Translations under genes and position numbers: made by a program | The notes under the pieces: model-generated | Database searches by the model: none | Seen by the model: only the letters and a program-made list of their open reading frames with translations | Told to the model about the DNA's origin: nothing | In this document: piece after piece, positions 22,927 to 52,660 of the stretch | Layout: each line of letters opens with the position of its first letter | Position numbering within the stretch: the first letter of the stretch is position 1 | Assembly (NCBI GenBank): GCA_037043015.1 | Contig: CM073324.1 | Coordinates: 12,545,013 to 12,609,012 of the forward strand | From: Bryum argenteum | Lineage: Eukaryota > Streptophyta > Bryopsida > Bryales > Bryaceae | Length of the DNA stretch: 64,000 nt | Direction of reading: 5' to 3'

Positions 22927-23183
22927 TGTTAGTGAAAAGCCCATGTGGCAAGACTGCTGACTGGATGATCCTTTTCTCAGACAAACGCCCCACGGCCACG
23001 TATCCGTAACAACCAGAATCATGAGGATTAGTGGAACTCAGTTAGCTGTGTGGGACCGTTAGTAACAAGCAGTCAGGCAGAGTAGTGGACCTTACTGCCA
23101 GTGATTGTATAAATAGCTATGAACAGTATCAGTAAAGCATCTGGAATATTTCCTACTACTCTGTGTGTCACCGATCCTGTTCA
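22927..23183 (+). repeat. 5' LTR of Copia 1
   Basis: 257 bp, TGTTAG...TTCA. A TATAAATA box is near 23107. One mismatch against the 3' LTR (A near 23154 versus G in the other copy). Confidence 0.95.
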
Positions 23184-25639: not shown

Positions 25640-25664
25640 AACCCCGTATTCGTTATATTTGGAA
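25640..25664 (+). repeat. Left terminal inverted repeat of the 24-kb element
   Basis: Begins AACCCCGTATTCGTTATATT. It matches the reverse complement of 49774-49798 at 23 of 25 positions. A partial echo (TTTCCCCGTATGCATATG) lies about 80 bp further in, at 25726-25743. Confidence 0.9.
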
Positions 25665-28161: not shown

Positions 28162-28985
28162 TCGTATGCCTCCTAGGCTTTCGCAAGCCCGTGTTCCGTG
28201 AATCGGGCCTCATGACCATCTCTGCTGCATTAAGGGCGTTGCGATAAACGTCACCTTGCTCACGCCCATAATTTTCATCCACGCAATTTGACAAACATCA
28301 ATACCCTCTAGAGTGACCACATTTCGCCTTTCGGCGTTTCTATGGAACCGCCACTTTGTGGACATCGAGTTTGACGTGATTCTTGAATCGCATGAGATGT
28401 CTTGTCGTACATGCGACATCTGAGAACCTTAATCTTCTCCCTTGGGTATAGCTGAACACAATTGTGCCTACAGCAGGTGTTACATGCGACCGCATTGATT
28501 GACTCGGCTGTCATCAGGAACTGTGCTTTGCGCGAAACTGGAGTAGACTCATTCCTTGAAGAATTATCATAGGATCGAGTTCGAGATGATCCCTGTCGCC
28601 GACTACGTTCCCGGACCCATCTGTTGTAAACATCTTGCTGACTATGGTCAAAAAGACTAACACCGTTAAGGAGAACTTGCTGGATGGGCCAGGACTTGAA
28701 GGAGTATATCCAGTCGTCTGGATCCTCGACCGCAACAAACAATGTTGAAACTTGCACCACAACTAGAGAATCACCAAGTAAGCCATTACAATCAGGTACA
28801 GCGCCAGATCGTAGATTTCTAAGTAAACCCTCAGCGATTCTCAGTCCTTCGGAATCAAGCATTGACACAGTCCTCCCTGTCCAGAGTCGTGGAGGGACAA
28901 CTTGAGCAGCAAGTAAACCAGGATTCATAGGAGCATCGACGAAAGCGTCATCGTCTGTAGAAACATCCATCCTGAAAGATGTCAT
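28162..28985 (-). pseudogene. N-terminal part of the transposase, frameshifted
   Basis: Likely start at 28985 (MTSFRMDVSTDDDAF). The first frame runs to a Cys cluster (CNTCCRHNC) and RCRMYDKTSH. Family-like sequence then moves through other frames: MRFKNHVKLDVHK, then NVVTLEGIDVCQIAWMKIMG, then YRNALNAAEMVMRPD...LRKPRRH, then the core frame. No GT-AG introns explain these jumps, so I count at least four frameshifts in about 300 bp. Errors in the assembly are the alternative. The CxxCC cluster suggests a zinc-binding N-terminal domain. Confidence 0.6.
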
Positions 28986-29055
28986 CGTAAGGTTAGAAAC
29001 TAATTAGACAAAAACATGGTCACAACTCCAAGACTGTATAAGAAACGAACAAGTG

Positions 29056-29517
29056 CAGTTTAGCTCGAGTCGAGCTAAACTGACTAAGAGAAATTCTTCT
29101 ACAGTTTAGCTCGAGTCGAGCTAAACCGCATCAAGTAAATTATAAATCAGTTTAGCTCGACTTGAGCTAAACTGTCTCAGGGACAGTGCCATGAAGAAGT
29201 GGAAGCATAGGTCTGCGCTTTGGATTCGCATAACACCATGTAAACAGAATCGCTATATACAAACTCCAGTTTAGCTCGACTCGAGCTAAACTGTTAGAAC
29301 GAACGCATAGAGCAGTTTAGCTCGAATCAAGCTAAACTGGACACATGCGTGATATACAGTTTAGCTCGAGTCGAGCTAAACTGCGTCAACATGCGGCATA
29401 CAGTTTAGCTCGAGTCGAGCTAAACTGCTCTATGCGTTCGTTCTGACAGTTTAGCTCGACTCAAGCTAAACTGCACACATGTGTGACATACAGTTTAGCT
29501 CGAGTCGAGCTAAACTG
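29056..29517. repeat. Left palindrome array (9 copies)
   Basis: Copies of the 27-bp palindrome start at 29056, 29102, 29148, 29267, 29313, 29357, 29401, 29447 and 29491. Arm CAGTTTAGCTCGA, one central base, inverted arm. Start-to-start distance is 44 or 46 bp except for one gap of 119. Four copies are perfect and two or more arms carry single transitions. The array begins 71 bp upstream of the probable transposase start, so it sits in the promoter or 5' UTR. Two spacers (29296-29312 and 29428-29444) are exact 17-bp inverted repeats of each other. Confidence 0.95.
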
Positions 29518-30036
29518 CATGACAAATTACAAGATTTGTTCCGGGTATTCCGGCGTATTTTACGGATTCAATTAGAACTCAAAGTGTCCGTTACTATCAG
29601 CGCCCTCCCATTCTATCGACACAAGCAGGAATCAAAATATACTCCTGTACCAACGTAATCGTCAAATCAAAAGAAAATGTCAACAATAATGACTCCGAAT
29701 GCATAAAGGTTAAGTACAAACCATTACAATACAACCACTGAAGAGAAATTATCAACTACTACTACTCAAGATAAGGATAAACGTATGAAGGATAATGAAA
29801 AAAACAATGCGAGAAGCTGTGCAAATCAAATTCAACGACACACAATCATGCAGAAATGAAAGCGCGAAACACGTACGCGAAGGTAGAGGTTGAGCTGAAG
29901 AAAGCGCGGAGAACTGAAATACGTCAACTGATATCAGCACACTCGGAGATTGAGAAGAAAAGAATCATTCTGTCCTGGATTTCGAAGGTCATTGCGTAGC
30001 GCAATGTCGTTTACGCGGTATTCCAGAAATAAGAAA

Positions 30037-30174
30037 TGGGAGGGAATCGACGTGTGGATAATTGAAAATTGGCGGGAACCGAAGTCTCGACAACTGAAAA
30101 TGGGCGCGAACTGAAGTGTCTACAGTTAAAAATGGGCGGGAATAAAAGGGTCGACATTTGAAAATTGGCGGGAT
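30037..30174. promoter_or_regulatory. 32-bp tandem repeat with E2F-like cores
   Basis: Four 32-bp units plus the start of a fifth begin at 30037, 30069, 30101, 30133 and 30165. Each opens with TKGGCGGGAA or a close variant (TGGGAGGGAA, TTGGCGGGAA, TGGGCGCGAA, TGGGCGGGAA, TTGGCGGGAT). Full units end in a TTGAAAA-like motif. TTGGCGGGAA matches the E2F/DP consensus. The position, about 1.1 kb upstream of the transposase start and directly next to telo-box sequence, suggests S-phase-linked regulation (inference). Confidence 0.7.
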
Positions 30175-30176
30175 TG

Positions 30177-30250
30177 GGGTTATAGGGTTTAGGGTTTAGG
30201 GTTCAGAGTTTAGGGTTTAGGGTTCAGGGTTTAGGGTTTAGGGTTTAGGA
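30177..30250 (+). repeat. Interstitial TTTAGGG repeat / telo-box cluster
   Basis: About ten degenerate units of the plant telomere repeat TTTAGGG, with two TTCAGGG/TTCAGAG variants. Single copies of its complement (AAACCCTA, the telo-box) act in promoters of plant proliferation genes. The repeat sits inside the element with AT-rich DNA to the right, so it is not a chromosome end. Confidence 0.85.
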
Positions 30251-33106
30251 TTTCTGATTACAGGAGGGTTATAATTGTTATTGGTCAAAAAGATGTTAAT
30301 CTTTATACACGTAGTTTGAGGTATACTATGTTAGCAAACACTCACTAACAAGATAAATGTTTACTTAAACTACTTAGAAGCAATACAATGGATTCGACTT
30401 CTAATTATTTTATCTTTCCGAATCGAATATCCTAAACCTCAGATCTTTATTTCTAAATAAAGTTTCTATACAATATATTCAATGCAATATTTACCTTAAG
30501 GTGAAGTCTTATTAAGTATTAAGCTATTATCTTATCTATAAGTTTAATAATACTACATTTTTTTTGTGTATGCTCTTGCTAACAATTCGTTATTGAATGT
30601 TAATTATTATACAGTTCAAATTATTTCTATCCTTTGCTATTTCTCGTTTAAAATTGCTGATTAAACATAATTTTTATTAAACTGTGTTTGCTTATTTGTA
30701 TATATTATAATTATAAATAATGTATTAAAATATACGATATTCATTGCATATTATATTATATACTATTTATCTATAAATGAAAAATTAATCTTTGAAATTG
30801 TAAGTTCATGCAATGTCAATGCAATCTTAGTATATTGTTTAGAGTATCAAATTGTTTGAGCTATAAAAAGTAGTGATAAAATCAAATATTCTTACTTTAA
30901 GTTTTAAGAGATATCTTTAAACTTATGTACGATTAAAAATTTATACAATTTGATAAGTAAATTTGTAAACCCTGTTAAATACACTTTGGATTATTTAATG
31001 AAATTTATTTGGATGTACATAAAAGTTTATATTTATGTTGAATGTCAATGTATACATGCTCAATGGTATATATCTAATTTAATATTTTTGTAACATAGAG
31101 CTTATCAAAATAAGATTAGTTCTGAATGTTTTAATTTGATTTGTAGATGTTTAACATTACAATTAAATTTCCTATTGAAATGTTCAATATCGATTAGAAA
31201 TATGCACATTTCGCGTTTCAAAAATGCATTTTTCAAATACAACCAATACAATCATTGATCTTTAATGTTGAAATTCTATTTTGCAAATTTTAGTCAATTC
31301 TAAATTACCTTTACCTATCGCCTCCCTACGCATTTCAATGTTTTTAAGCACAGTGTATAGTGTAAGAACTATTATAAACTTTGATCCTTCCAAAGCGATC
31401 GTTATCTAGTGATTTGCATTATATTTAAGTACAAAGCATTTTGTACGATGTCAAATATAATAGGTCATTGTACTGTATGCATAAGTCCCGAATGTTTTTT
31501 TTATCGAATGAAATGATTTTGTGTTTGAAATGAAAAGTTTTTTTGTAGATGTTGTCTTTATACACCGTCATATACATCTGTACAAGTGATTATAAACATT
31601 ACTAGCACAGTAAAGTCAGATGTTGGTATTGATTATACACATTTAATGTACATTAATTTTGCGTTTATTCAAAAAAATGAGCAGTGTGACTATTAGAAAA
31701 CAAAAAACAACAATATTTGTTGAGTCTTTTTACAAATTTCTCCTTTCAGCTCATATTTTACGTGATTCAAATTATCGAGATTCACAAATGTAAGTATTAA
31801 AATTATTATTACATGTGAACAATCTTTTTGAGTGATGAAATTTAATGTCGTATTTCTGTTTTAAAAGTGACTGTTCTTTAATAATTTATTCTAGTACCTT
31901 ATAAATATATTTAAACGCATACTAATGAACAAAAATGGTTTTAAATGAACATGCAATGAAAATAAATGTACAGAAATGATCGTTGTACAGTGCAGATAAC
32001 AATGTAAGCCAATCTGTAAACTAATAGATGCTTTTATATTTTTAAATTGTAATCATAGTCATTATATTATCAAAAATATTTCTTTTTTGATGTATGTAAA
32101 TTGTAAAATTCCATACAATAGGCAATATTTATAGCTTATAGTTTAAGAAATTTATTGAATCCTTCTATGCAATACCATGTCTTTCAATTACGCTTTTCAA
32201 AGATTTTAATATCATTAACTTATATTTGACATCAAATAAATCGAAATTTGCATTTGTGCGAACTTTCACTATTCTTCCTAGTCTTATTTATGAATCTCTT
32301 ATCCTTATCTATTTATAGAATTACTTATCGTTTTTTTTTTAATGTTGGTACTTTCCCTAATATAATTTTTGAATTAATAATTCAGTTATTAACTTTTGTT
32401 GCCAAATACTCTATTTATAGGATTATCAAAATTTGAAAAAATATCATATATCTCGAGAAAAAACTTTTAAGAGAAGAAGTTTATTGAGAACTGCTTCTGA
32501 ATATATGAGTTTCTCGATGACGTAAAAAAGGGAAATGATACATTGGGTTTAAGCTTGACGTTTTGGTGACACTAAAACAGCCATTCAGAGAATGACCAGA
32601 GATTGATTGATGGTATCACTAAGATCACTAGCCGAGAAACATGTATCTTGAGCATTTTTAACCCAATTTCTATTTTAATTGAAGGTGAAGACAAAGAGCT
32701 AACACTAGCCAACATTGAATCAATAGTGTATGAATTTGACTTTCAATACAGCAATAGTGATCATACAACACCGTCATCGTAACTGAATAAACCATCCCAT
32801 ATTACTACTTCAATCTGCTTATTCTTAAATAAGAAATGTATTTCATATGTATTAATAATTTATTCCTAACCTTCTCTCAAATAATCAATTATGAAATAGT
32901 AAATTTATTAATTTTAATACCTAAATAACATATCTATACAAAACTATATTTATTGGATTCCCTATTTATTAATTTTTTAGTGTAAATAATAATAATAATT
33001 TAAATTTCCAAATAATCTATTTATTGACGAATTAATTCCAAATTCTATATTCATAAGATCATGTATTTCTTGGCGGATCAGTTCTCTAAATTAGATATAT
33101 ATATAT
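30251..33106. other. AT-rich island, left part
   Basis: Strongly AT-rich, with no coding sequence or recognisable repeat. Composition changes sharply right after the telomere-like run. The island continues at 39146-40290 beyond Copia 2, giving about 4 kb before that insertion. Confidence 0.6.
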
Positions 33107-33348
33107 TGATAAATCATATTGAAGTAAATGAAATGCAGTCTGTCCCGAACCCATGCATTGGGCTGCCTACGTACCTTCAGCCCGAAGCTTTTAGGATCAG
33201 GGACTCACGTAGTTCTGTGCTACATGGGTGTGGGCAGTTACTGTAACTGCCACTAGCCTATTATTCAGTACCATAGTATAATACTGTACTCCACTACTCT
33301 TTCCAGATCTACTGTAGAACCGAGCCTATACAAGCCTACGGCTTGACA
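33107..33348 (-). repeat. 3' LTR of Copia 2
   Basis: 242 bp. Carries a hairpin with inner arms AGTTA/TAACT around 33236-33248. It matches the other LTR at every other position except one terminal base. Confidence 0.92.
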
Positions 33349-34220
33349 CTCCCCCTGCTCGGTGACATTATAAGTAGAGTGAACTTGAATAAGAGCAGCT
33401 GTCTAAGCGTCGATGAGGGCGCGGCATCAGTGGGTTACAAGTCGACACTACTTAGCTTTGCCGGGCGACTGCTGTCGGAAGTGGGATAAGGATCGGAGCT
33501 TCATGGTGCGGAGGTGTTTCCAATGCACTGAGGGCGGTAGCGTCTTTGTAAAAATATCGGCCAAATTTGCCGCAGATGTGATCTTCTCAATTGTGGTATT
33601 GCCTTGTTTGACTTGCTCCGCCGAATAGAAAATTTTAGGCGAGAGGTGTTTCGTATTCTCTGTCTTAATATAACCTGCGGACATTTGATGCCGTGCTGCG
33701 TCGTTATCTTCAAAAATCTTAATCGGCTCGTCGGCAATGGGTAACGCAATGGTGACGATATATCTTTTTTAACAAGTTTCGAAGCCAGATGGCCTCCTTC
33801 GTAGTGTCATAGAGTGCAATCAATTCAGCATGGTTTGAAGACGTGGCAACGGTCGGTTGCAACTTCGAGCTCCACGAAATCGGCGACCCCCCCAACGTGA
33901 AAACGTACCGGATTGAGAGCGACCTCGGTCAAAGCGCAGATAAATAGCCGTCGTCTGCGAAGCCCTCCAGAGCGGTGTCGTTCTTCTCAAAAAGAATCCC
34001 GAAATCTTTAGTGCCGTTTAAATATCGCGAGAAGGTGTTTAACGCCGCGCCAATGTCTCATAGTGGGCTCCTTGCTATGTCGTGAAAGGAGATGTGTAGC
34101 AAATTTTATATCCGTGCGACATTGAGTGCGAGCCATGAAACCGACATGACCGCTTTGACATAAGGAAATTCCACTGGTAATATTTCTTCATCTTCCCTCC
34201 TTGGCCCATATTCATCTCTG

Positions 34221-35823
34221 TCACGGGTCAGAATTGCGAACAATAAGTGGTGTGGGGAGAGGATGAGACGCTTCCATAGCAAATTTCTTGAGTAGTCGTT
34301 CTGTATAGGTTGTCATATGCATATGGACAGAACCGTTGCTCAAATGTTCAAGTTCAACACCCAAACAGCCCGGGGTCCTTCCATAATCTTTCACTTGAAA
34401 TTCCGTTTTCAAGAGTGTAACTGTAAGAGCAACAGCTTCGCGTGTACCAAAGATATTAATGTCATCAACATATATCGCTAACATGACCAAGTGATTCTTC
34501 TTTCGATCAACAAAAACACAAGGTGCGAATTTACTTACCTGAAAGCCGGAGTCAGTCAAATACTTTGTGAGATGGTCATACCATAAACGTCCACTTTGTT
34601 TGAGGCCATATATTGCCTTGTGGATTTTAACGACTTTATCTGTCAGGCGTTTTCGCTTGTTCTGCAGTAATGATTTGCCATTAACTGGCCGTGAGATAGG
34701 CGCAAACGACACACGTTGATGCGCAGTGCTCACGTTTATGTTCGCAGCCAACCCGGTGCCAGTTCGGGCAACGGCAGGCTGAGCCGGGGACACACCCTCG
34801 TCCAGTAATCCTTCAGGTATCTCCATATAGAGGTCTTTGTCGATCTTGCTATATAGGTAAGCAGTTACGACGTCCAGTAACCTGAAGGTGAGACTTTCTC
34901 TTACAGCTACGACAATAAGGAGTCTGAATGTTACAACATCCATAACTGGGCTGTAAGTGAAGTCGTAATCAGTACCATACTTTTGGGTGTAGCCTTTAGC
35001 TACAAGTCTCGCTTTATATCTTATGGTCTCTCCGTTGGAGTTCAATTTCCGTGCATAAACCCATTTCGAACGAATAGGTTTCATTTCAGGCGTCTTGTCC
35101 TGGGGTTTACCGAACACCATCCGTTCTTTCATTGAACCAAGCTCAGTCTGCATAGCTTTCTCCCATGCTGGCCATTCTTTTGATTGTCTAGCTTGAGTAA
35201 TTGTCTTTGGTATGTCATTTTGCGTTTGAATGTGCAGGACCGTATCTAGCATCAAGCTATGCTCCGGTGGTAAGTGCTCATGGTTCCATATGTGCCCCTG
35301 TGAATGCAATCATGTTGGCATTCTCGGCCTTTGGATGGTGTGGCTTTGTGCTCCCCACAGCCGGTTGCTCCCAGGGCGGCTGCTGCGCGTTAGTCGGCTT
35401 ATTTTTCGAACCGAGAGGTCGGCCTCTTTTTCGCCGCACCACTGAGATATTGGTTGGGGTTGGATCCGGTGCTATGCGTGCAGGCATATGTTGAAGTTGG
35501 AAGTATGGTGTTGTGGAGATCTCTGAGGTATTTGCAAACGAATCCGGCAATTTCCTCGCTAGCTCTCGTAGTCGTAAGATCCGTCGCACTTCGCTGTCAC
35601 TTCGTAAGTCTGGATAATCATCATGCTGGCGAGTATTCCAATCGATATCAAGTATGGTTTTGGAAATGCTCTGTTCCATGGCCAGCTTTGGGAATGATTG
35701 TTCGTCGAAGTGACAGTCTTGAAAGCGAGCTCTAAAGAGATCACCAGTTGTAGGCTCCAAATACTTAATCAAGGAGTTTCCGATGTTGCCAACGTATATC
35801 CCTTGCTTCCTCTGAGGACCCAT
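34221..35823 (-). pseudogene. Copia 2 reverse transcriptase region
   Basis: Two overlapping frames (35278-35823 and 34221-35309) cover the integrase C-terminus and reverse transcriptase. Motifs: KARLVAKGYTQK, AIYGLKQSGRLWYDHL and the catalytic YVDD (AIYVDDINIFG). Most of RNase H is lost or out of frame. A remnant of its end (ANLADIFTKTLP) lies at 33448-33684. Confidence 0.85.
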
Positions 35824-37540
35824 TTTCTGACGTTTCGTTGGGTCTAAAGGAACTTCAACTGCACAACCAAATTTACGGAGATGACTAATACGTGGTTTAT
35901 TGCTGGTTGCAAGTTGATAAGGGCTGATGTTGTTCTTGGGTGAGGGGCGGGGCGGATCAAATCAAGAAGATGCATCATCGCATGCATGCCCACGCTGTAA
36001 GTGACAAGTTGGATTTTAATAATAAAGGTCTTGCAATCCACTGCAAGCGTTTAATAAGATTTTCGGCAAGGCCGTTTTGGAAATGCACTTCTGGCAATGA
36101 AACTTCAAGATTTATACCAACGGCTGCACAGTATTCAGTAAAGGTTTTGGAGGTGAACTCCCCCGCTCCGTCCACCCGCAGGTTTTGCACATGATGATCT
36201 GGGAACTTAACTTGTATGCTGATCAACTGAATAAGCATCTTAGCAAATGCGTGATTTCTTGTGGATAGCACATTTACTTCTGTCCATCTTGAGGTAGCAT
36301 CAATCATAACCATAAAGTAACGAAAAGGGCCTGATGCAGGTGAAATGGGGCCGCAAATATCAACTTGGACTCGTGTAAGAAATTGGTATGTTTCTTTGTC
36401 TTTGAGTTCACGGGCCGGTTTGGTGATCAGCTTGCCCCGAGAGCATGCTATGCATGATTCTGGGATTTTGTTGCGTATTATAATTTCCTCTGCAGCAGAT
36501 CGTAATATTTTCTGTAACATCTTAAATGAAGGGTGGCCCAGGCGGTCATGCCAAAGGCATGCATCTTGAGATGTGGGATATAAAATAGCAATAAACTCAT
36601 CTGTCTTGATCTCAAAATCTATTAGTCCAAAGGCGGGTTTGTAGTAAAACTTCTCTACGACATTACCGTCGTGATCTGTGAATACTTTATATTTCCTGTC
36701 TTCGTTAAATATGTGTGTGTGGATTTCATATCCGCTATTAAAAACGTCATCCTCACATAGGACTTGTCTTCTTGCTGTGGGTATAAATAGTGCTCGTTCT
36801 GAATAAATACGTGTCCCACCAAGAAGAACAAAAGTTGCTGGTCCAGAACCGTTGACAATGAGGTCAATGCCACTCATAGTTGCAATATTGTAAATTACTG
36901 ATTGAAATTTGGTAAAATATTTTCGGTGTTTTAATACAGTTGAAGTGGCTCCTGAATCCAGGATCATGGTGGAGTTAGAATCTTTTATGTCCCGGTTTAT
37001 CATACCCAGGATCGAGTCGACAGCCTCCAACTCGTCCAGGTAATTGTATTCGTTGTCATCCATAGCTTTGGTCGGCTTCTTTGTTGCTGACTGATTCGGC
37101 TTGCGACCACCGCGCCATGGGGATAGGTTGGTGGTTTTCCTGTACTTCGCGACTACATTGTCCGGTGTGCGACAGTCCTTTGCGAAATGTCGTTTCTTAC
37201 CGCACCTAAAGCATCTGCTAGGGACTTGGTCGCGGAAACGTTTGTTGTGGGAAGATGATTCTTTCGGGTTGGAAGTAATAGCTTTGCGGGCGCCCTTATG
37301 CCGCTGCTTCCAGGGTGTCTTCCGTCGACCGGCAGGTTGACTCTGGTCGGCTTTCTGCTGCGGGTCTTTTACATAATTTAACTCAGGGATCGGTTTGGTG
37401 CCTGCAGGTCGCTGATTATTTATGTCCTTCGCCAGATTGTTATACTTCTCATTTTCAGTCAGGTATAACAGCAAATCTCGAGATTCTTTATATTTGATCA
37501 CCATCAGTGATTCTCTCAGCATCATTCGTTGTGGACCCAT
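35824..37540 (-). pseudogene. Copia 2 zinc knuckle, protease and integrase
   Basis: The main frame 35975-37540 has the knuckle CFRCGKKRHFAKDC (the usual Gly before His is Lys-Arg), protease LDSGATST, and integrase with QVDICGP, LRVDGAGEF and QNGLAENLIK, so all three D,D,E residues are present. It is out of frame with Gag upstream and the RT frames downstream. Confidence 0.85.
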
Positions 37541-37560
37541 TGTGTATAAAATTTTATAGA

Positions 37561-38064
37561 TTATCTGGTCCTCGATTCATGTTTCTCACAATATTGTAAT
37601 TTTGCGACAAGCGTAAATAAAGCTGTTTTAAATGCTTCAATCTTGTCGAAGTCCATATATCGCAGGTTTGACCATTCCGTCCAGACTTCAGGGAACAATA
37701 TTTCCTTCATTATTTCGAAGCGCCGCTTTATCTCTGCCCACAACTCGTAAGGCTGCTCGAATTGATACATTTGCAGAGCAAGCTCGTCTTTCAAGCGGAG
37801 GCGAATATATAAGTTTGCAGTTTTCAATTGCTTGGATGTAAATTTTCTCGCAGTGACTGGGATTATGTGGGTCGGATCCTCAGCTTGCTTCTTAGTATGT
37901 TCCTCAAATTGTGAGTTAGGCATTGGAGGAATGATCGTCTCATCTAAGTTCTTACTGGCAAGGTATTGTGACATGTTAAGTGTCCACATTATATAATTAG
38001 ATCCATCGGTTTCTAATGATTTGAAACCAGGATTTGAGGGAGTAGTTGTTGTATCAGTAGCCAT
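37561..38064 (-). pseudogene. Copia 2 Gag
   Basis: A 167-codon frame from ATG at 38064. It has the LETDGSNYIMWTLNMSQYL start and KRRFEIMKEILFPE region typical of Copia Gag (UBN2-like). It ends in a stop after CEKHESRTR. The downstream pol frame is in a different phase. Confidence 0.85.
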
Positions 38065-38704
38065 TTATGGATAGTAAGAATTGACAGAAATGTAGAATAT
38101 GTGAGAAATGAAATGTTTCTTTCTACTATTGAAAACGTATGTGAGTACTTATCTCATTTTCATCGTCATAGAATGTATGCTTTAAGATGAAGTAATATGA
38201 TGGTGTTGCAATACGATATCTCAATGATCAATCACATCAAGAGGCGAGCCAGGCCAGCAGGAATCTTCCAAAATCTTTGCCTGCGCTTCCTATTTATGGT
38301 GGAGTATGTGGGCTTTTTAGTTACATGGACGCCACCAGTATGGTTGATTTTTGATTGATTTTGGAGGATCAGGTAACTCTTTCCGGAATAAAATTGGGCG
38401 GCTCTCTTCTGAGTACTTTCTTATTTGGGGTGATTTGATCTATTTCATTTGTTCCCTACGGTTTGCAGCTCAAGTTCGTTCATGATGATTCCATCAACAT
38501 CGAGACGAAACTGATCGTCAAAACCCCATTACTTCTTCCGTGCTAACTTCAATTTCTCGAAAACCCCACTGAGTCAATTCATATTGCAGGTACTCCTTTC
38601 TGTACAATCCGCATGCAGAATGATATGTTCATCATATGATATTGAGGTATAATAATGCTTTTCTTTCCTCTGAGAATGGAAATACTGTAATTGAATGGGC
38701 TTCT

Positions 38705-38842
38705 GTGCCCTGACTTGTGCGCTTTCTCTAAATGCGGCTCAGCATTCTGTTCATTATTGACATAGTCCATTCAGTGCCCTGACTTGTGCGCTTTCTCTAA
38801 ATGCGGCTCAGCATTCTTTTCATTATTGACATAGTCCATTCA
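38705..38842. repeat. 69-bp tandem duplication in the Copia 2 leader
   Basis: Two units, 38705-38773 and 38774-38842, nearly identical (gttcatt versus tttcatt). They lie in the untranslated leader between the 5' LTR and Gag. Confidence 0.85.
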
Positions 38843-38901
38843 GTGGAGAGTGAACCTGGAGTTTTTTTTTTTTTTTTTTTTTTCAAGCAGTGCTGATAAC
38901 G

Positions 38902-39145
38902 TGATAAATCATATTGAAGTAAATGAAATGCAGTCTGTCCCGAACCCATGCATTGGGCTGCCTACGTACCTTCAGCCCGAAGCTTTTAGGATCAGGGACT
39001 CACGTAGTTCTGTGCTACATGGGTGTGGGCGATTCTTCAGAATCGCCACTAGCCTATTATTCAGTACCATAGTATAATACTGTACTCCACTACTCTTTCC
39101 AGATCTACTGTAGAACCGAGCCTATACAAGCCTACGGCTTGACCA
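38902..39145 (-). repeat. 5' LTR of Copia 2
   Basis: 244 bp. Its hairpin has inner arms GATTC/GAATC at 39031-39044 in place of AGTTA/TAACT in the other LTR. Confidence 0.92.
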
Positions 39146-39493
39146 TATATATATATATATATTTAGATGTATTAATATATTTAGTACATAGTCTAATCAA
39201 TAATCCTTGATTTCTATGTGTATTCAATAATTTTTTTAAGAACAATTATCTTTCAAAATATTGTATTTATAAGATACTTTATCTTCTGGTGACCAGTTTA
39301 TTATATGGAATTTGTTTTATTTAATTATTTACATTGACATATTTATGAAATGTCCATAAAATATCCCCAGATTCACAAATTTAATGTGTATTATATTATC
39401 TCTTCATTGAAATTTATATTTTCCAATAAAATATTCATTAAAAATATTGTTTATTAACGAAAAATACCAAAATAATTTATCTACCAATAATTT

Positions 39494-39537
<44 letters not shown>

Positions 39538-40290
39538 TGACATATAGAAGACTGTAGTGTTATGATAAATAGTGATCATTTTGATTTCTCATTTTTTTAA
39601 AAATCACATCAGTTTTCTATTTGCAACTCTTGCCTTTGAATAGGAATCCCATAGATCTTTTCATACTCTACCGCCATGTGACTACAGTACAAGAAAAATA
39701 TTCACGTTTTTGAATTCATAGCATATGAACTTACGGTTATATATATTTCTACTAACAAACTATTTTTTGTACTTGTAAATACTCATCATCTTAAGTTGTA
39801 CATACTTTAGAAGTACACAAATTAATATTTATAAGACAATATGTGGTATAAATATTTTTTTATTCGTTATACTGAAGATGATCAAAAAATACACAGTAGT
39901 TAGAAAGTCAACAACCTCATACATAGAATTTGTTTTACTCTAAATTGGTTTTTCATGGAGGTATTCAGCACGGGATAAAAATTAAACATTATAGATTTTT
40001 TTTTACAAAAGATAGGGAACAATGTACTCTCTACATATCGTGTTTAATCCTAAGAATTCGAAGTTCTTTACTGTACTAAATTTAGTCAAAATTTTGTTAA
40101 AAAACTTCCACTAAAATCCATGACATTTACTTAGTTAAAATTGGGACAAAACTTGGACATGAACATAGTCAAATCTAAGTCAAAATTTAGCCAAGAATTA
40201 GTAAAAAAAAATTTATTCAAAATAAGTTAAAATGTAACAAAATTGTAAACAATAAATAATTAATAACGAAAGTAATTAACAAAAGTAATT
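39146..40290. other. AT-rich island, right part
   Basis: Continues the island at 30251-33106. Includes an AT microsatellite (39145-39170) and a run of about 41 T at 39496-39536. No gene. Confidence 0.6.
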
Positions 40291-40295
40291 CTTTT

Positions 40296-40390
40296 GCCAT
40301 GCCCATGATCATGTGCATGGGCATGGTCATGTACATGGTCATGCATGTATGTATGTATGTCCATGTGCATGGCCATGCCCATGCACATCA
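40296..40390. repeat. CATGNN low-complexity repeat
   Basis: About 13 CATG tetramers in some 95 bp, mostly spaced by exactly six bases (CATGCC CATGAT CATGTG and so on), with a short ATGT microsatellite in the middle. Every CATG is itself a palindrome, so the segment can fold in many registers. Confidence 0.8.
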
Positions 40391-42142
40391 TCATACGTAT
40401 GAAAAAGTACTGGTGATGGGATTGGACGTCCCATCACCGCCGCCTTCTCCACGGAGTCCCATCCCACCCCCCACTTACTTGCTCAAGGGTCCCGTCCCCC
40501 CCCCCCCACTTACCTGCCATTACGAGCAGTCTTCCTGTTGTCTTCCTCGTTGCCCTGGCTCATGCGCTCCTGGTTTTTACTGAGGTTTTTCGTTTGCCCT
40601 GGCTAATGCGATCCTGCTTTTCCTCGTTTGCCTTGGCTCAGCTGCGCTCCTGCTTTTTTGCTGTTTGTCGTGCTTTTGTGAGTTTATTCTGCTTTTTCTG
40701 AGGTCTCATTCTCCAGGTTTTACTGCGCCTACTTTCTGGGAGTTAGCGCCAGTGTCTTGCACTTGTCGTCTTGCGCGAGCTGGTGTTTTGTCGTTTTCCT
40801 TGTATTCGACGAGGAGGTTCTTAGGTTTTTCGCGCCATTTCACGCTGGGCACTGCGTGAAAGAGTTCTTCGCCGGAAGGAGTTCGTGGAGCGGCAGTGCT
40901 GCTGCGAGTTCGCGGAGGTCGGCGGTGTTGCTGCGATTTCGCTCGGCGGCGCAGGTGCTGCTGCGAGTTCGATTGGCGGCGGTGTTGAGCTTGGCGTCGG
41001 TTTTCTGCTTCTGCTCTGCTACTGCATCATAAAGGTTAGTAATCTTTTGCGCGTAGTTAGGGTTTAGCGTAGTTTTTTTTGTTTGTAGGCCCGTCTGTGT
41101 CATTTACGAGCTCATAGTTTCATGTTCGGTCGGGGGGAGCGGTCCGCCCCTTCGTGGGTGTGCACTGGTCCCACGCGACCTTGGTTTTTGGTGCAATTCT
41201 GGTGCAATTTTGGTGCAATTTTGGTGTTTCTGGTGCAATTGCTGGATTTTTGAAAGACGAACTTCTGCGAAAGCATTCGCCGATGATGTATTCATTAATA
41301 AATAACAAAAGTAGGGGGCTCGAAGACTGTTAGATACCGTCCTGGTCTTAATAATAAGCGATGCCGACTAGGGTTTGGCGGGTGTTGATTTGATGACCCC
41401 GCCAGCACCTTATGAGAAATCAAAGTTTTTGGATTCCGGGGAGAGTATGGTCGCAAGTTTGAAATCTAAAGGAATTGACGGAAGGGCACTACCAGGAGTG
41501 AGATTGTAGGTAGATTCGAAATTTCTTTCAGTGACGAAATTTGTGAACTCTTACTTGTGAGAGTTAGGCCGGGAATAAAAATTGCGCACTTCAAGTTAGA
41601 ATTTGCAGTAACTTGTATTTGAATTGCTTGTAGTGAATCTTGCGGGAGATACAATCTTGTGGAACGTCGAGATAGTCGTATTTGGAGAAGAATATCGAGG
41701 TAAAGTGACAGAAACGCTTGTGTATGAGTCAGTCAAACTGGACTTGCTATGATTGTTTGTAATTTTCTATTCCCGCTTTCATTGTTCATTGTTCATTGTT
41801 GTGCATTGTTCTTAGCACTCATTTCAAGATTCAATGCTGATGCTTAGGATTGAAGCTCGTACATGTTTGAATTTCACGTAAGGTGCAGCATGTTATGCTG
41901 AATTGCTTAATTTTGTTAAAAGAATGCCTACGCTTCAGCTTCGATGAAAGTATCATTAACATCTGATTCCAATTCCATATGTATTCACAGAACTCTGAAT
42001 AATACACCACAAATACTTACAAGCAAACGTAGTTCCTCACACACCTCCCCAATCCATGACCAATCACATTCTTGTGCAGGTCAAGGCGTCAAGCCCAAGC
42101 GGAGTGCATCACAGAAGTCTACCCCAGAATATACAAACACAA
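40391..42142 (+). promoter_or_regulatory. Putative promoter and leader of the ParB-like gene
   Basis: A GC-richer block at 40430-41100 follows the AT island. It has a C10 run near 40498, three imperfect direct repeats (TTTGCCCTGGCTCATGCG and variants, 40549-40665) and a good donor (ATAAAG then GTTAGT) near 41035. Short tandem units TGGTGCAATT occur at about 41188-41245. An acceptor at about 42080 (TTCTTGTGCAG) could open an exon running to 42153. I infer a non-coding or mostly non-coding first exon; no transcript evidence is available. Confidence 0.4.
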
Positions 42143-45100
42143 TGGCAGACAGGTGATAATCATCATCAACAAAATCCACTAACTAGCATGCAAGTAGTTC
42201 GGTCCTCTCTAAAGTTTATAGTAATATGCCCCTACATGGAAGCGGCTACAGTTTAGCTCGAGTCGAGCTAAACTGTAGTGGACAACTGCCTCTACAGTTT
42301 AGCTCGACTCGAGCTAAACTGCAGAAACAACTGTTAACTACAGTTTAGCTCGAGTCGAGCTAAACTGTAAAGTACATGTTACTCTACAGTTTAGCTCGAG
42401 TCGAGCTAAACTGTAGTTGGCACGTTACTCTACAGTTTAGCTCGACTCGAGCTAAACTGTAGATGGCACCAGCCTCTACAGTTTAGCTCAAGTCGAGCTA
42501 AACTGCTGCAACTGTTATTAATTCATAGACTATTGATAACGCAGATAACGCATATATAAAGGAAATAAATATGTAAGAACACTAAAAAAAACAACAGACC
42601 AAAAGGAAACCAACATAGACGAACGTACATCCGTCAACAGTTTAGCTCGAGTCGAGCTAAACTGAATGTGGCACCAGCCTCTACAGTTTAGCTCGAGTCG
42701 AGCTAAACTGTATCTTGCACCAGCCTTTACAGTTTAGCTCGACTCGAGCTAAACTGTAGCTTGCACAAGCCTCTACAGTTTAGCTCGAGTCGAGCTAAAC
42801 TGTTGCGATTGTTAGTACTTCATAGTAACTTAATAACGCAGTAACAAGATCCCGGTACATAGTACGACTTACCAACACGTAACAACCGAATAACATAAGA
42901 CCACACACTTCCAAACAGCAGACAGACATCCATAGACAGTTTAGCTCGACTCGAGCTAAACTGCAAGTGGCATAAGCCTCTACAGTTTAGCTCGAGTCGA
43001 GCTAAACTGAATCTAGCTCTAGCCTCTACAGTTTAGCTCGACTCGAGCTAAACTGTTGCTGGCACGAGCCTCTACAGTTTAGCTCGAGTCAAGCTAAACT
43101 GTTGCAAGTATTCAGTCAAAGTTTTCCAGCTATATGGAAATGAAAACGAAAAGTTCAGTACAAGTACTAAAAAGAACTATAATCTATGCTTCATGGATAT
43201 GAGGCCACTATCAACTAACACAATGTCCATTTACAGGCAGGAGAAGGCACGAGTTCAGGAGGCGCTCCAACACTTCTTCAAGCTTAGGCCATCGGATATT
43301 GACGAGGACGATGGCGATGACACAAAGTAGTTGAACTGCTGGGAATTCAAGGACCCATCCAAAGTTGTGTCCTGGTCGGCCAGATGGATTCCGTATACAG
43401 CATTCCTTACACTCGTCGTGACCTATGAAGGAAATGTAGAAGACCCCATTTCCATCGACATGGATTCCAAGTTCACGGACTTCGATCACGAAACGGAGAA
43501 AGAAATCATTGCTACATTAACAACCTTCAAGGAGAAGGACAAGGAGCAAGCATACAACTACACCATTCTGATCGATATCAAGCAGACTGGTTTTGACCTA
43601 AGCCAGTTAGTAGAGAGTTTAGAGCCGTCCAGTTTCGACGAAATTAAAACCACACTGAAACAGGATATGCTTATGAAGGCATGGCACACCAAACAGGGGG
43701 GAGATCTGAAGGCCAAGCAGCTCGCCATCAAGCTGCGATCCGTAGTCTCTTCTCTCACACACGCTGACATTACGGCAAAGACTATACACCTGAAAGGGAA
43801 AGCGCCACTGGAGGGATCTGGGCTGACTGCAACCGGGAGCGGCGTACAGAGCAGAACCCCAACGCGCCCGCAGCGTGCAACTAGACCCACACCAACAACC
43901 ACCACGACTACAGACTCGTCTCTAATAAGGAGAGAAGCTCCCGTGAAAAAGTCGACCGAGGCGAAGAAGAAAAAGAACATGCTCATCCCCGAGGAGGATG
44001 CTCTAACGGCTTTGAACGATGCTATTAAATGCATTCCTAAGAACGTTAACACCGTTGAGGAGATCGACTTCGAGAACGTCAATCTCATCTATCAGATGTT
44101 CTTCACGGACTGTCAGGACTGTTTCGTATTTCCGAAACCTGACACAAAGATAGAGGTCGACTTGATGAGGATGATCGAGTCCCCTTCCGAATGGACCATT
44201 CGGGCTTTCAAGAAGAAGGGCAAAACAGACTTGATGAATTATCTCATCAATATGCCCGACAGGTCGCAGAAGCAAACGCTCTGCGTCATGCCGAAACTGG
44301 ATGTGAAGCCGAACGGCCTGGAAGATATGCAGGACTGCGAGTTTTGGATCATCAACGGCCAACACAGCGTTGCCGCCTCGAAGCAGATGCTTGAGTCCAA
44401 AGTCCCAGAAACGATTCGCAAAGACTTCCGGGTATGGTCAGCTTTCGTAGTTTGGACAAAGGATGAAGCCAAGCTCCGCAAGATATCGGCGTTTTATAAC
44501 AGAGTGAACCACTTCACTCCATTTAAGCCGACTTGGGCATCAAACATCCTTGCTGCCCGAACTGTGTGGGAGAACTACGGGCGCCCAGCGAACAGACATG
44601 CAGCAGCTGGGGTGGCGGATAAGCGCGTGCAAACAAAGCGAGTTGTGTCACAATTCGCAAATTTTGACGTAAGTGGTACCTCATGTCGCATCACACCTAT
44701 TTTCTATCATAGCAATTTGTTCCCCGTAACAGTTTAGCTCGGGTCGAGCTAAACTGTCGTTTCTGCTTAATAAACTGAAGATATTTACAGCTATTGAATT
44801 CTATATGCACACAACAGAAAAAGCTTCCGCTCTCTTCCACTCTGACATCTTGTGGCATTGCAGAAATTCGTGGACTCCATTCGACATAGGTTCGCCATGA
44901 TTGATGTTGCCAAGGCCCAAGGAGAGGTGAAGCACAAGGTCTTGTCCCTTACGAATGAGCTGAAGATTATCACCTTCCCTGAAGATCTCTGGAACCTGTG
45001 GGCAGAGTTGATTGGAAGTGTGGCCCAGGGGACCCTTATCGACCCCTACTCCTTGAGGCAGCTGTGTGACAAGCCAGGGTTCAAACCAGACAGCGATCAA

Positions 45101-47212
45101 ACCTTGTCGAGGGAATTTTTTAAGAACCTCGGTAACCTTTCGGAGTCAGACCATAGAAAACTCTGTTCACATATGTTGAATAGGTCAGGTCCGTCACGTA
45201 AACTGGAATACCCGAAGGTTACACTCAAACAACCGGTAACGCTTCTTGAAGATTGCTACTCCGTGAAGGAGTACGTTGAACGGTTGAAGCGTAAGGCGAC
45301 CGCCCAGCTTCAGATCCACAAGATCAGACCTGAACTGGGAATCTTCAAGAACAACGAGTTCGATGTGGAGGCGTGGAAGAAATTCAAGAAAGACTTTCAC
45401 GTCACGAAGGCCTCAAAGCGCGCACTCCTGGAATGGGGGATACCTGATAAGTACTACGCAGACCAAAGGCAAACCTAGCACAGGAATACCAACTGCGAAG
45501 ATCTCTCTCCCTACGCGAAGAGGTTCTTCGAGGTGTTTCTGGAGAAGCGCGAAAAGTTTACTGGCCCTGTTGGTACTCTTATATTCCGTTCCTTCGAGCG
45601 CAAAACACCACAGAGGCTGAAAGATTGGCCTGAGAACAAATGGCCAGAACCTGCACCCGAGATGAACGTCGGGATCATCGACTTCAGATTGGTTCCGGGT
45701 AGTTGTAGTACCTCAGCTGATTCCTCGCCTGACCACCCATTCTTCGAAATGTTCATGGCGATCCTATCGTCCCAGAACAAGCCAGCTCTGAAAGATGTTC
45801 CCTGCTGGTTATTTATTTGCGGAGGTGAGAGTGAATATGCGCAAGTTGAGGCGTTCGCGACTAATCCTTCATTCTTCCCAGGGAATTATAAGCTGATCCC
45901 GTCGATGTACTATCCATCCCCGAACGAACGGCTCGCTGGATACAACGCGAAAGCGAAGCAAGCCTCAGAGCCTGTGCGTCTTCTCTTCATGATCAGGGGA
46001 AACGTGAACCTCGCGCGTATGCCTCAGGCCGAGTATCGCGCTCCAAAGCACGCGCTTTACGAGAAGCCACGGAAATACAACGAGTCACGGTACCACATGT
46101 ACCCGATCGAGTTACAGATGGATTTCTATTTGCAGGTCATCCAGCTATTCTGTCAAGAGCAAGAAAACATCTTTCTTGTCTACGCCGGCGGGAAAGCAGT
46201 CTGCGCAAGCATGGTAAGCTTCGCTGCAGTAAAACTCGATAATTTCTCTCGCGTAGGAACCCCTACAGTTTAGCTTGACTCGAGCTAAACTGTATGACAG
46301 TTTAGCTCGATTCGAGCTAAACCGTCTAGCTTGTTTCCAAACCATTTCCGCTTCTTACAGAAGATTTCAGTTCTTGATGCTGCACTGTTTTCTTTGTAGA
46401 TGTTGTCTCTCGACGCCTACGCTATATTCGACGCCGAAGATAGAGAGGACATCGACCAGGCGTACGATGAAGGGCTTACTCTTGATCCTACAGACTTCTC
46501 CGTGAACGGGTATTTCGTCGACAAAGTCCAGTTCCCGGAGGTTGGCGCCATGCTCTTGAAAGGCAAGCGCAAAGCTGTTATGTCTTTGGATGACAAAGCC
46601 CTCGACGATGAGGCGGACGTCTCTGACCAGGAGGACTTTGGGTCAAGTGGAAGGCAACTTCACGGTGAAGGCAGCACTTACAGCCTTGGTTCCGGAGGGG
46701 ATGACGAAGAGCATTTCATGGAAATCGACACGACCCCTCGGACACCGCAGGAGTCGCGGACCGCTCCCAGGCGAGGAGGAGGCAGAGGGAGTGCAAAGCG
46801 GAAACGTAATCCCCTGTCGAGGGACTCACCCTCAAGTAGGTTCAAGGCCGAGGAGAGTGCTGAATTGGCAGCACTACAGCGCAAGGTTGAGGAGGAGATG
46901 GCACACCGGAAAGAGTTGGAAGAGCTCCTTAAACAGCAGAATATTGAGCAGCGAGAACGCGAAAAGAGGGAACAGGAACGCCATGGCAGGTTGATGGAGA
47001 TGATGGAGAGTTTAACTGCCGGCCACGCATTAGCTTTGGCGAAGACAAAGGCCACCACTGCTACCCGTGCTGATCCTGCATCCCTGCAACTACTCCCGTC
47101 TCTGCCGCCTCCAACTACCGAGCCTCCCGCAACTACGCCTTCCTCTCCTATGCCTGAAAGAGGACCAGTGGGTGACGAAGAAGAAGAATCTCCAGGTCCT
47201 CCTTCAACTTAG
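42143..47212 (+). CDS. ParB/DGQHR-like domain fused to methyltransferase-like domain
   Basis: Spliced model: 42143-42153 (ATG GCA GAC AG), 43237-44668, 44863-46213 and 46400-47212. All junctions are GT-AG and keep phase (DNA after AG reads MADR-QEKARVQ). Exon 2 encodes a domain with FWIINGQHSVAASKQ, like the GQHR loop of ParB/DGQHR proteins. The end of exon 3 resembles the motif-I half of N4/N6 DNA methyltransferases (YPIEL..., ENIFLVYAGGKAVCAS), but an obvious DPPY motif is missing (IIDFRLVPG instead), so the enzyme may be inactive. The last exon is basic then coiled-coil (about KAEESAEL to MESLTAG) with a Pro-rich acidic tail. In-frame TAG codons occur at 43328 and 45476. ParB-methyltransferase fusions are common in prophages. 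Introns 1-3 hold 14, 1 and 2 palindromes. Confidence 0.6.
42249..42505. repeat. Right palindrome array R1 (6 copies)
   Basis: Copies start at 42249, 42295, 42341, 42387, 42433 and 42479, exactly 46 bp apart. Central base order is G, C, G, G, C, G. Spacers are 19 bp and partly conserved, many ending CTCTA, so flanking TA often extends the palindrome. The last copy has a CpG-to-CpA change. Inside intron 1 of the ParB-like gene. Confidence 0.95.
42638..42802. repeat. Right palindrome array R2 (4 copies)
   Basis: Copies start at 42638, 42684, 42730 and 42776, exactly 46 bp apart, all perfect. Central bases G, G, C, G. Spacers have a GGCACCAGCCTCTA-like core. The sequence after the array resembles that after R1 (TTCATAG...GATAACGCAG-like), so R1 and R2 are higher-order repeats. 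Confidence 0.95.
42937..43101. repeat. Right palindrome array R3 (4 copies)
   Basis: Copies start at 42937, 42983, 43029 and 43075, exactly 46 bp apart. Central bases C, G, C, G. The last copy has a CpG-to-CpA change. The array ends 135 bp before the exon 2 acceptor. Confidence 0.95.
44730..44756. repeat. Single palindrome in intron 2 of the ParB-like gene
   Basis: One A-to-G change next to the centre (CTCGGGTCGAG). It lies in the intron 44669-44862. Confidence 0.95.
46266..46324. repeat. Two palindromes in intron 3 of the ParB-like gene
   Basis: Copies at 46266-46292 and 46298-46324, 32 bp apart. The first has a C-to-T change at a CpG. The second has a changed centre and a T-to-C at its end. 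The intron is 46214-46399. Confidence 0.95.
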
Positions 47213-47329
47213 ATTTTGGATCGAGTGTATAGTATTTAAGTCAGAATGCCGGAAAACACATATACATGTGAAATTTTGTATCAAACTCGACACATTTTTT
47301 GTAATTAATACAGGCCTTTACTATTCTCG

Positions 47330-47356
47330 CAGTTTAGCTCGACTCGAGCTAAACTG
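47330..47356. repeat. Intergenic palindrome copy
   Basis: A perfect copy with central C between the stop of the ParB-like gene and the next exon. It may lie in a promoter or intron of the downstream gene. Confidence 0.95.
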
Positions 47357-47784: not shown

Positions 47785-48594
47785 TTTTGTCGTGGTGCGC
47801 CGTTTTCATTTCGCGTCAACGAAGCATCGGTCAATGATTTAATTTCTAGAGAAGACATAGGTCGGGTTCCAAGCAAATCCTCCGGTACTTGGTTAAATGT
47901 TGTTCTCGACCTCAATGGTATCCTCTGCAGTTGTTCCCCATTTTGGGAAGCTAAAGGATACAGAAATCGTGACTTCCGTATTCACTCAGCCACGTTGCCA
48001 ACCGAGGTGGGGAAGAAGCTTGTATGGGTGAGGCCCAACTGTAAGGACTTCCTCTCTCGGGTGGCATCGTTTGCTACCATCACGGTTTGGAGTTCGATGA
48101 TGAGAACAACCACAGAAGCCATTTGTGATTTTCTCTTCCGTCCTATAATCCCTATTAGACCACTACGAATTCTTGGTCAAGAAGACTGTGACATGATTCC
48201 ATTGAAATCTGGTGGGAGCAGACCATTGTTCATGAAGGAACCGGGAACTCAGAAGTCTATCTTCCTTAAGACATTGTCAGCTCATCTCTTCAATAGCTTT
48301 GATGGTTTTTATACAGAGGCTAATACGCTCATCATAGATGATAGTCCGGTAAAGCACGTGCTTAATGCGCGGGAAAATGTTATTTTACTACCATCCTGGT
48401 CTCACAAGGACAATAGGGCACACGAGGATTCTATTTTGTTAGATGAGGTTTTGCCGTATCTGTTAGAGCTCCATGAGTTTTACGGTTCCCTTAGCAAGTT
48501 TCGGTCATCGTTACCATTTGGACGTGCCATGATATATGATGATCGTGCATCATTAGATCTGTATAATGATATACAAAAGGCATTAATAGAATGA
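47785..48594 (+). CDS. FCP1/NIF-like HAD phosphatase domain
   Basis: An open frame from about 47785 to a TGA at 48594 with the HAD order of CTD-like small phosphatases: motif I VVLDLNGIL near 47898, WVRPNCKDFLSRV, motif II TVWSSM, LGQEDCD, FLKTLS, and TLIIDDSPVKHV with the DD pair. Motif I has Asn where active FCP1 proteins have the second Asp (DxDxT), so catalysis is doubtful; plant NIF-like proteins can show this. No in-frame ATG precedes motif I, so the start must be in another exon or the 5' end is lost. Element cargo, possibly captured from the host. Confidence 0.65.
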   Translation, partial: FCRGAPFSFRVNEASVNDLISREDIGRVPSKSSGTWLNVVLDLNGILCSCSPFWEAKGYRNRDFRIHSATLPTEVGKKLVWVRPNCKDFLSRVASFATITVWSSMMRTTTEAICDFLFRPIIPIRPLRILGQEDCDMIPLKSGGSRPLFMKEPGTQKSIFLKTLSAHLFNSFDGFYTEANTLIIDDSPVKHVLNARENVILLPSWSHKDNRAHEDSILLDEVLPYLLELHEFYGSLSKFRSSLPFGRAMIYDDRASLDLYNDIQKALIE

Positions 48595-49773: not shown

Positions 49774-49798
49774 TTCCCAATATAACGAATATGGGGTT
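49774..49798 (-). repeat. Right terminal inverted repeat of the 24-kb element
   Basis: Its reverse complement begins AACCCCATATTCGTTATATT. It is followed directly by GTGC (49799-49802). Confidence 0.9.
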
Positions 49799-49802
49799 GT
49801 GC

Positions 49803-52292: not shown

Positions 52293-52660
52293 TGTTAGTG
52301 AAAAGCCCATGTGGCAAGACTGCTGACTGGATGATCCTTTTCTCAGACAAACGCCCCACGGCCACGTATCCGTAACAACCAGAAGGGACACATGTAGTAT
52401 CGGCGACCTCACCTCAGCAAATGTACCCGCTTGCTACATTCTGCACGAAATAATACATGGAAGGTCGCCGATACTACATCTTAGCCCAACCAGAATCATG
52501 AGGATTAGTGGAACTCAGTTAGCTGTGTGGGACCGTTAGTAACAAGCAGTCAGGCAGAGTAGTGGACCTTACTGCCAGTGATTGTATAAATAGCTATGAA
52601 CAGTATCAGTAAAGCATCTGGAATATTTCCTGCTACTCTGTGTGTCACCGATCCTGTTCA
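52293..52660 (+). repeat. 3' LTR of Copia 1 with a MITE inside
   Basis: 368 bp. Identical to the 5' LTR except for one base and a 103-bp insertion at 52385-52487 with its duplicated flank. Confidence 0.95.
52385..52487. mobile_element. 103-bp MITE in the 3' LTR
   Basis: Inverted ends share ATGTAGTATCGGCGACC, with outer bases GGGACAC at the left and GGGCTAAG at the right (reverse complemented). Flanked by AACCAGAA (8 bp, or 9 with the preceding C) at 52377-52384 and 52488-52495. An 8-bp duplication suggests hAT and a 9-bp duplication suggests Mutator-like. Absent from the 5' LTR, so it inserted after Copia 1 integrated. Confidence 0.9.

What the first reader, a model, noticed from the sequence alone, without database searches (positions are those of the whole stretch)
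29056..47356. 27 copies of a 27-bp palindrome confined to the element
Arm CAGTTTAGCTCGA plus a central G or C plus the inverted arm occurs nine times upstream of the transposase, 17 times in introns of the ParB-like gene and once between genes. I saw none in the other 40 kb of the window. Such dense near-perfect palindromes imply selection as protein-binding sites. A ParB-like protein in the same element recalls parS sites.
Basis: partly seen in the sequence, partly recalled or inferred. Interest (0 to 1): 0.95.

Follow-up and report, generated by a model that had tools for sequence, protein, structure and literature searches.

The report
Self-targeting site arrays in moss transposon
A 24-kb jumping element in what is probably a moss genome carries 27 near-identical mirror-image DNA sites in the control regions of its own genes, and distant relatives keep sites of the same design in matching places, which suggests that the element makes a protein that recognises and marks its own copies.

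Summary
Confirmed: 27 copies of a 27-bp dyad (18 exact, 9 with one change; none elsewhere in the window at up to 3 mismatches). They sit in a 24,159-bp DNA transposon (25640-49798; 25-bp inverted ends; 4-bp duplication GTGC) inserted in a Copia element. The genome holds 4,063 sites. Of 23 clusters sampled, 22 are tied to this element family; the last lies 20.3 kb from an element end. All 30 transposase loci examined carry an upstream array. The ParB-like gene is real: its core models as a ParB N-terminal domain, and its later part as an N6/N4 methyltransferase fold without the usual catalytic motif. Three contigs from elsewhere encode relatives (24-33% identity) with palindromes in matching non-coding places; two share the core AGCTCGA-N-TCGAGCT, the third CTCGA-N-TCGAG with other outer arms, changed on both sides. 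Best reading: binding sites of the element's own ParB/pseudo-methyltransferase protein, used for self-recognition, most like the VANC anti-silencing systems of Arabidopsis. Binding is untested, the transposase remains possible, and bacterial-type partition is unlikely. Two arm variants that I predicted were absent from this genome.

The parts
25636..25639 (.). left target-site duplication GTGC
   Evidence: joined flanks give one open Copia frame
25640..25664 (+). left terminal inverted repeat
   Evidence: 122 forward + 116 reverse genome matches at up to 3 mismatches
26086..29003 (-). DUF7869 (putative transposase) gene; not one frame in this copy (ORFs 26086-28209 and 28308-29003), open for 980 aa in copy C8a
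   Evidence: (PF25273 E 1.8e-43)
29056..29517 (.). array of 9 palindromes upstream of the DUF7869 gene, mostly 44-46 bp apart
   Evidence: 30 of 30 DUF7869 loci examined have 5-12 upstream sites at up to 4 mismatches
33107..39143 (-). nested Copia element (LTRs 96.3% alike)
42142..42152 (+). coding exon 1 of the ParB-like gene (11 bp, inferred)
   Evidence: same start in copy C8a; no transcript data
42153..43236 (+). intron 1 with 14 palindromes (42249-42505: 6; 42638-42802: 4; 42937-43101: 4)
43237..44668 (+). exon 2: PH-like domain, linker, ParB-like domain; one in-frame TAG in this copy
44669..44863 (+). intron 2 with 1 palindrome (44730-44756)
   Evidence: read-through tails of homologues
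44864..46213 (+). exon 3: helical region, then N6/N4 methyltransferase fold with degenerate motifs; one in-frame TAG in this copy
46214..46399 (+). intron 3 with 2 palindromes (46266-46292, 46298-46324)
46400..47212 (+). exon 4 (charged, low-complexity C-terminus)
47330..47356 (.). single palindrome between the ParB-like and phosphatase genes; one also lies there in copies C8a, C8b and C2
47785..48594 (+). NIF (CTD-phosphatase-like) gene, main exon; a similar ORF follows the ParB-like gene in L059
   Evidence: PF03031 E 2.1e-14; L059 by inspection, not scanned
49774..49798 (-). right terminal inverted repeat (2 mismatches to the left one)
49799..49802 (.). right target-site duplication GTGC

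Best explanation
The 27-bp dyads are double-stranded binding sites for a two-fold symmetric protein encoded by the element, most likely the product of the ParB-like gene (PH-like domain, ParB-like domain, helical region, catalytically degenerate N6/N4 methyltransferase fold). The protein recognises arrays upstream of the transposase gene and in every intron of its own gene, and so marks its own element family. I infer that occupancy counteracts host silencing and/or tunes transcription of the two genes, as VANC proteins do for VANDAL transposons. Shown: the sites, their confinement to the family in the sample, conservation sharply limited to about 21-27 bp, a matching layout in diverged relatives, symmetric change of outer arms between families, and the predicted folds. 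Inferred: binding, which protein binds, and the effect.
Against: No binding data. The DUF7869 protein is equally linked to the sites in this genome and could be the binder. No HTH was identified. The GANTC centre fits CcrM-like recognition, but a given centre of this form has a 1 in 16 chance. Two variant arms inferred from protein tails were absent from this genome (0 and 0). L061-type sites (13 in the genome, in 10 places) lie within 10 kb of a listed L061-like ParB match at only 1 of 10 places (against the list, where 105 of 1012 candidates were scored). Not every copy in the relatives is perfect: some sites of L059, L060 and L061 depart from the inner core by one base.
Confidence: 0.58

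Rival explanations
1. The DUF7869 transposase, or a complex of it with another factor, binds the sites as an internal transpososome enhancer or as autoregulatory operators.
For: Arrays lie upstream of the DUF7869 gene at 30 of 30 loci examined, and a 69%-identical DUF7869 elsewhere has the same motif.
Against: In the window the sites are 2.4-3.4 kb from the ends, not subterminal, and unlike the TIR; 18 of 27 are in or beside the ParB-like gene.
Confidence: 0.2
2. parS-like loading sites: a ParB-type nucleotide-switch clamp loads at the dyads and slides or spreads over the element, for partition or for marking.
For: Predicted ParB N-domain fold; dense dyads beside the gene for the protein.
Against: The canonical ParB triphosphate motif (recalled) is replaced by a conserved NGQH motif; no HTH identified; chromosomal element; ParA not searched.
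Confidence: 0.12
3. RNA-level hairpins (small-RNA precursors, splicing or export signals) in introns and leaders.
For: All intron sites could fold as hairpins (not folded here). In copy C2 wobble-compatible changes outnumber the others, 19 to 10.
Against: On the sense strand of 30 upstream regions wobble-compatible and wobble-breaking single changes are equal (69 and 69), and symmetric double changes are 9 against 7.0 expected; in ParB-region sites 3 against 7.
Confidence: 0.06
4. Passive tandem duplication or a self-spreading short repeat without a function.
For: Arrays are tandem with 44-46-bp periods and vary in number between copies (5-12 upstream of DUF7869; 25 at up to 7 mismatches in L057).
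Against: Spacers diverge while the block does not; a common core persists beside relatives with 24-33% identical proteins.
Confidence: 0.04

Closest known systems
VANDAL21/VANC21 anti-silencing system, Arabidopsis (PMC5735166: abstract, outline and passages read; PMC10398659: abstract and outline)
   Same: Transposon-encoded factor with motif arrays in introns and upstream regions of the element's own genes; arrays expand and contract; related families have different motifs.
   Different: The VANC21 motif is a 9-bp YAGTATTAY arrayed in one orientation, and binding and loss of methylation are shown by experiment; here a 21-27-bp dyad, a ParB/methyltransferase-fold protein, and no experiment.
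Sola1-1_Ec32, giant Sola transposon of Ectocarpus with a ParB + DNA methyltransferase protein (PMC12477816: section 5 read)
   Same: 21.5-kb DNA transposon; accessory gene on the strand opposite the transposase; ParB-like plus N4/N6 methyltransferase domains; the authors suggest that such proteins bind and modify their own element.
   Different: No target site is given in the section read; its methyltransferase is predicted to make N4-methylcytosine or N6-methyladenine, whereas the catalytic motif is missing here. Homology was not tested.
Bacterial ParB, Noc, KorB (solved structures; survey PMC12704722: passages read)
   Same: Predicted N-domain fold; the known partner sites are dyads (recalled).
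   Different: No detectable sequence match, different motif, integrated eukaryotic element.
CcrM and other beta-class N6-adenine methyltransferases
   Same: Predicted fold; the palindrome is centred on GANTC, the CcrM site (recalled).
   Different: None of 35 homologues has [DNS]PP[YFW]; motif I is altered in those that reach it.

Membership tests
Sola DNA transposon superfamily | 4-bp target-site duplication | tested here: met
   GTGC, CTTT, TTAA in 3 of 3 copies with both ends in hand; feature from PMC10741241 passages
Sola DNA transposon superfamily | terminal inverted repeats | tested here: met
   25 bp, 23 of 25 identical
Sola DNA transposon superfamily | DDD transposase homologous to Sola | not tested
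   DUF7869 present; no Sola reference sequence was available
ParB protein family | ParB N-terminal (CTPase) fold | tested here: met
ParB protein family | curated ParB sequence-profile match | tested here: not met
   no ParB family among the Pfam rows shown (25 of 26 families shown); no PDB hit for the profile at E up to 5
ParABS partition system | parA gene and segregation role | not tested
   no ParA search was made
N6/N4 DNA methyltransferase | fold | tested here: met
N6/N4 DNA methyltransferase | catalytic [DNS]PP[YFW] | tested here: not met
   none of 35 homologues; 28 of 35 show DF[RH] at the apparent place
VANC-type anti-silencing system | motif arrays in non-coding parts of own element | tested here: met
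VANC-type anti-silencing system | protein binds the motif and causes loss of DNA methylation | not testable with these tools
   needs DAP-seq or ChIP-seq and bisulfite data
VANC-type anti-silencing system | homology to VANC protein | not tested
   no VANC sequence was compared

The most novel reading that the evidence does not exclude
A bacterial-type ParB clamp fused to a dead DNA methyltransferase has become a plant transposon's self-recognition factor: it loads at GANTC-centred dyads and spreads over the element to keep it unsilenced, and each transposon family has its own outer-arm code, so several families in one genome act independently.
Probability: 0.25. Interest if true: 0.92.

Novelty: new variant of a known kind. 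Interest (0 to 1): 0.74.

Why it matters
ParB plus methyltransferase accessory proteins of algal transposons have been proposed to bind and modify their own element (PMC12477816, section 5), but I saw no target site described for them. These arrays supply a concrete, conserved candidate site that a gel shift can test at once. If true, sequence-specific self-targeting by transposons arose at least twice in plants from proteins that look unrelated, and a ParB-type DNA clamp may work in a eukaryotic nucleus.

Tried and rejected
RNA hairpin: wobble-compatible and wobble-breaking changes equal on the sense strand, no compensatory excess (one search took four of the 30 loci the wrong way round, which I corrected there). 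Chance or simple tandem repeat: rejected by shuffles and by conservation limited to the block. Subterminal transposase sites: the palindromes lie kilobases from the TIRs and are unlike them. Viral collection: 0 matches of the 25-bp motif in viral contigs; no relative of the ParB-like protein confirmed there.

Predictions that failed: from tails of distant homologues I back-translated two variant arms; both gave 0 sites in this genome. They came from other species and back-translation is degenerate, so I do not use them. A looser sign, tails ending in V (GTT TAG), was not above shuffles for intron 2 (6 seen, mean 3.3, maximum 10) and somewhat above for intron 3 (11 seen, mean 4.6, maximum 10). 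Helical phasing: 44-46 bp is not a whole number of turns, so not pursued. Co-location of L061-type sites with L061-like ParB genes: 1 of 10 places within 10 kb, inconclusive. TTCAGCTCGA-type pattern in this genome: 167 at up to one mismatch but only 1 exact in the listing, so probably mostly neighbours of the main motif. The L060 ParB-like protein could not be searched in this genome. In the fold search of the ParB exon no HTH-domain match was noted; this does not exclude one.

Not done: the third protein-homologue search, Foldseek proper (searches found the machine busy), any methylation or expression data.

Full report
OBSERVATION. An odd palindrome with centre G is the same site as one with centre C read on the other strand. 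In 30 regions around DUF7869 genes the centre is G or C in 214 of 224 sites with at most 2 arm mismatches.

THE ELEMENT. Inverted ends at 25640-25664 and 49774-49798 are flanked by GTGC on both sides; joining 150 bases of each flank gives one open Copia frame. The element is 24,159 bp. Matched LTR pieces of the interrupted Copia (within 22927-23183 and 52293-52660) are 99.4-100% alike, while a Copia nested inside the element (33107-39143) has LTRs 96.3% alike. So the element moved recently and, by inference, carried the older nested Copia with it. Two other complete copies have duplications CTTT and TTAA. Four base pairs, inverted ends and large size fit Sola transposons as described in PMC10741241 (passages read), which says that Sola occurs in Physcomitrella. 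I could not test whether DUF7869 is a Sola transposase. In this copy the DUF7869 gene is not one open frame and the ParB-like gene has two in-frame TAG codons, so it was probably moved in trans.

HOST. G000 is 258.8 Mb in 25 contigs. The only homologues of the ParB-like protein listed with a eukaryote's name are from Physcomitrium patens, at 29-30% identity, and a GGGTTTA repeat lies at 30177-30253. A moss is my inference.

The motif occurs 4,063 times at up to 2 mismatches, reversed control 0. TIR matches number 122 forward and 116 reverse, DUF7869 matches 65 (63 of 2,245 candidates scored), ParB-like matches 91 (91 of 971 scored). I examined the 30 DUF7869 loci that were cut out: each has 5-12 sites at up to 4 mismatches upstream of the match, and 258 of the 260 such sites are upstream. 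The tool listed only the first 100 exact sites, all in C1:1-10.83 Mb: they form 23 clusters, 18 of them within 20 kb of a listed TIR, DUF7869 or ParB mark; 92 of 100 sites against 16.6% of random positions (the mark lists are capped too). I fetched four of the other five clusters and all four align with the element; the fifth is 20.3 kb from a TIR. In this sample the motif is essentially a property of the family.

CONSERVATION. Aligned on the centre, the 27 bp hold 1.4-2.0 bits per position (centre 0.8) in 258 sites around DUF7869 genes and 69 ParB-region sites; flanking positions hold 0-0.9. Sites were chosen at up to 4 mismatches, which inflates the block, but the edges are abrupt. Copies differ in site number (27, 44, 27 at up to 6 mismatches) and spacing. 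In copy C2, whose aligned coding DNA is about 70-75% identical, 57 sites (to 8 mismatches) occupy the same places with other spacing, and TTTAGCTCGA-N-TCGAGCTAAA is the conserved part.

OTHER SPECIES. Scanning bacterial and archaeal genomes with the protein alignment found three contigs in a cyanobacterial MAG (AVDCRST_MAG81), which I take for plant contamination. L059 and L060 (33% identity) have 8 palindromes each, consensus ATTCAGCTCGA-N-TCGAGCTGAAT; L061 (24%) has 5, consensus TTTATCCTCGA-N-TCGAGGATAAA. By ORF positions those of L060 lie before exon 2, after exons 2 and 3, and after exon 4, as in the window; exon edges there were not modelled. The inner CTCGA-N-TCGAG is common to all consensus sequences, though some single sites depart from it by one base. 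Outer arms differ between families, and both arms differ together. In the same MAG a DUF7869 69% identical to ours has an upstream exact 27-mer plus two near copies; 18 of the 20 CTCGANTCGAG sites of the MAG are in the four element contigs (20 against 7 for the reversed control). Independently, proteins predicted from other sequence sets run on into the introns and spell the palindrome: 16 of 50 readable intron-2 tails and 4 of 17 intron-3 tails hold LARxEL, SSxRA or a terminal L[ED]SS; shuffles give about 0. 33 of 83 and 18 of 35 proteins had no tail readable by my rule. These tails are degenerate evidence, and the DNA contigs carry the argument.

MECHANISM. A dyad conserved on both half-sites and insensitive to orientation, without RNA-type compensation (9 symmetric double changes, 7.0 expected) or wobble bias (69 against 69), is best read as a double-stranded binding site of a dimer. 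ParB-region sites give 3 against 7, and copy C2 goes the other way, 19 against 10. The arrays lie where they could control the transposase gene and the ParB-like gene itself. This is the layout of VANDAL21, where VANC21 binds short motifs in introns and upstream regions and removes silencing (PMC5735166, passages; PMC10398659, abstract). I therefore propose self-targeting, with anti-silencing or autoregulation as the effect. The transposase as binder cannot be excluded.

NOVELTY. Giant Sola elements with ParB-methyltransferase genes are known (PMC12477816, section 5). Full-text searches for DUF7869, for combinations of giant transposon, moss, ParB, Sola or methyltransferase and for the motif letters (17 papers, 8 listed, none on transposons by title) showed no description of these arrays in the listings; subscription papers are mostly not held.

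Noticed in passing
G000 contig C1 (44.1 Mb, 17% of the genome): C1 holds 73 of 91 ParB-like and 50 of 65 DUF7869 matches. Matches off C1 are more often free of stops (DUF7869 10 of 15 against 10 of 50, p 0.001; ParB 10 of 18 against 18 of 73, p 0.02; match lists are capped and include fragments). C1 may be a low-recombining chromosome such as a U or V sex chromosome.
   Followed up: partly
G000: The L061 ParB-like protein has 111 matches in this genome (105 of 1012 candidates scored), most of them at places outside the list, so several sister families probably coexist; 13 L061-type palindromes occur.
   Followed up: partly
L059-L061, L066 (AVDCRST_MAG81 contigs): A cyanobacterial MAG in GTDB holds contigs that look like plant transposons, probably contamination.
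   Followed up: partly
window 3619-4950, 8752-10095, 16453-17286, 53651-55006, 57438-58676: Five related ORFs of 277-451 aa flank the element on both sides; they look like membrane proteins to me, unidentified.
   Followed up: no
window 30177-30253: About eleven GGGTTTA units, plant-type telomere-like, inside the element beside a 32-bp tandem repeat (30034-30173).
   Followed up: no
window 47785-48594; L059 5170-6021: A CTD-phosphatase-like (NIF) gene follows the ParB-like gene in the window, and a similar ORF does in L059; it may be part of the element's machinery.
   Followed up: partly
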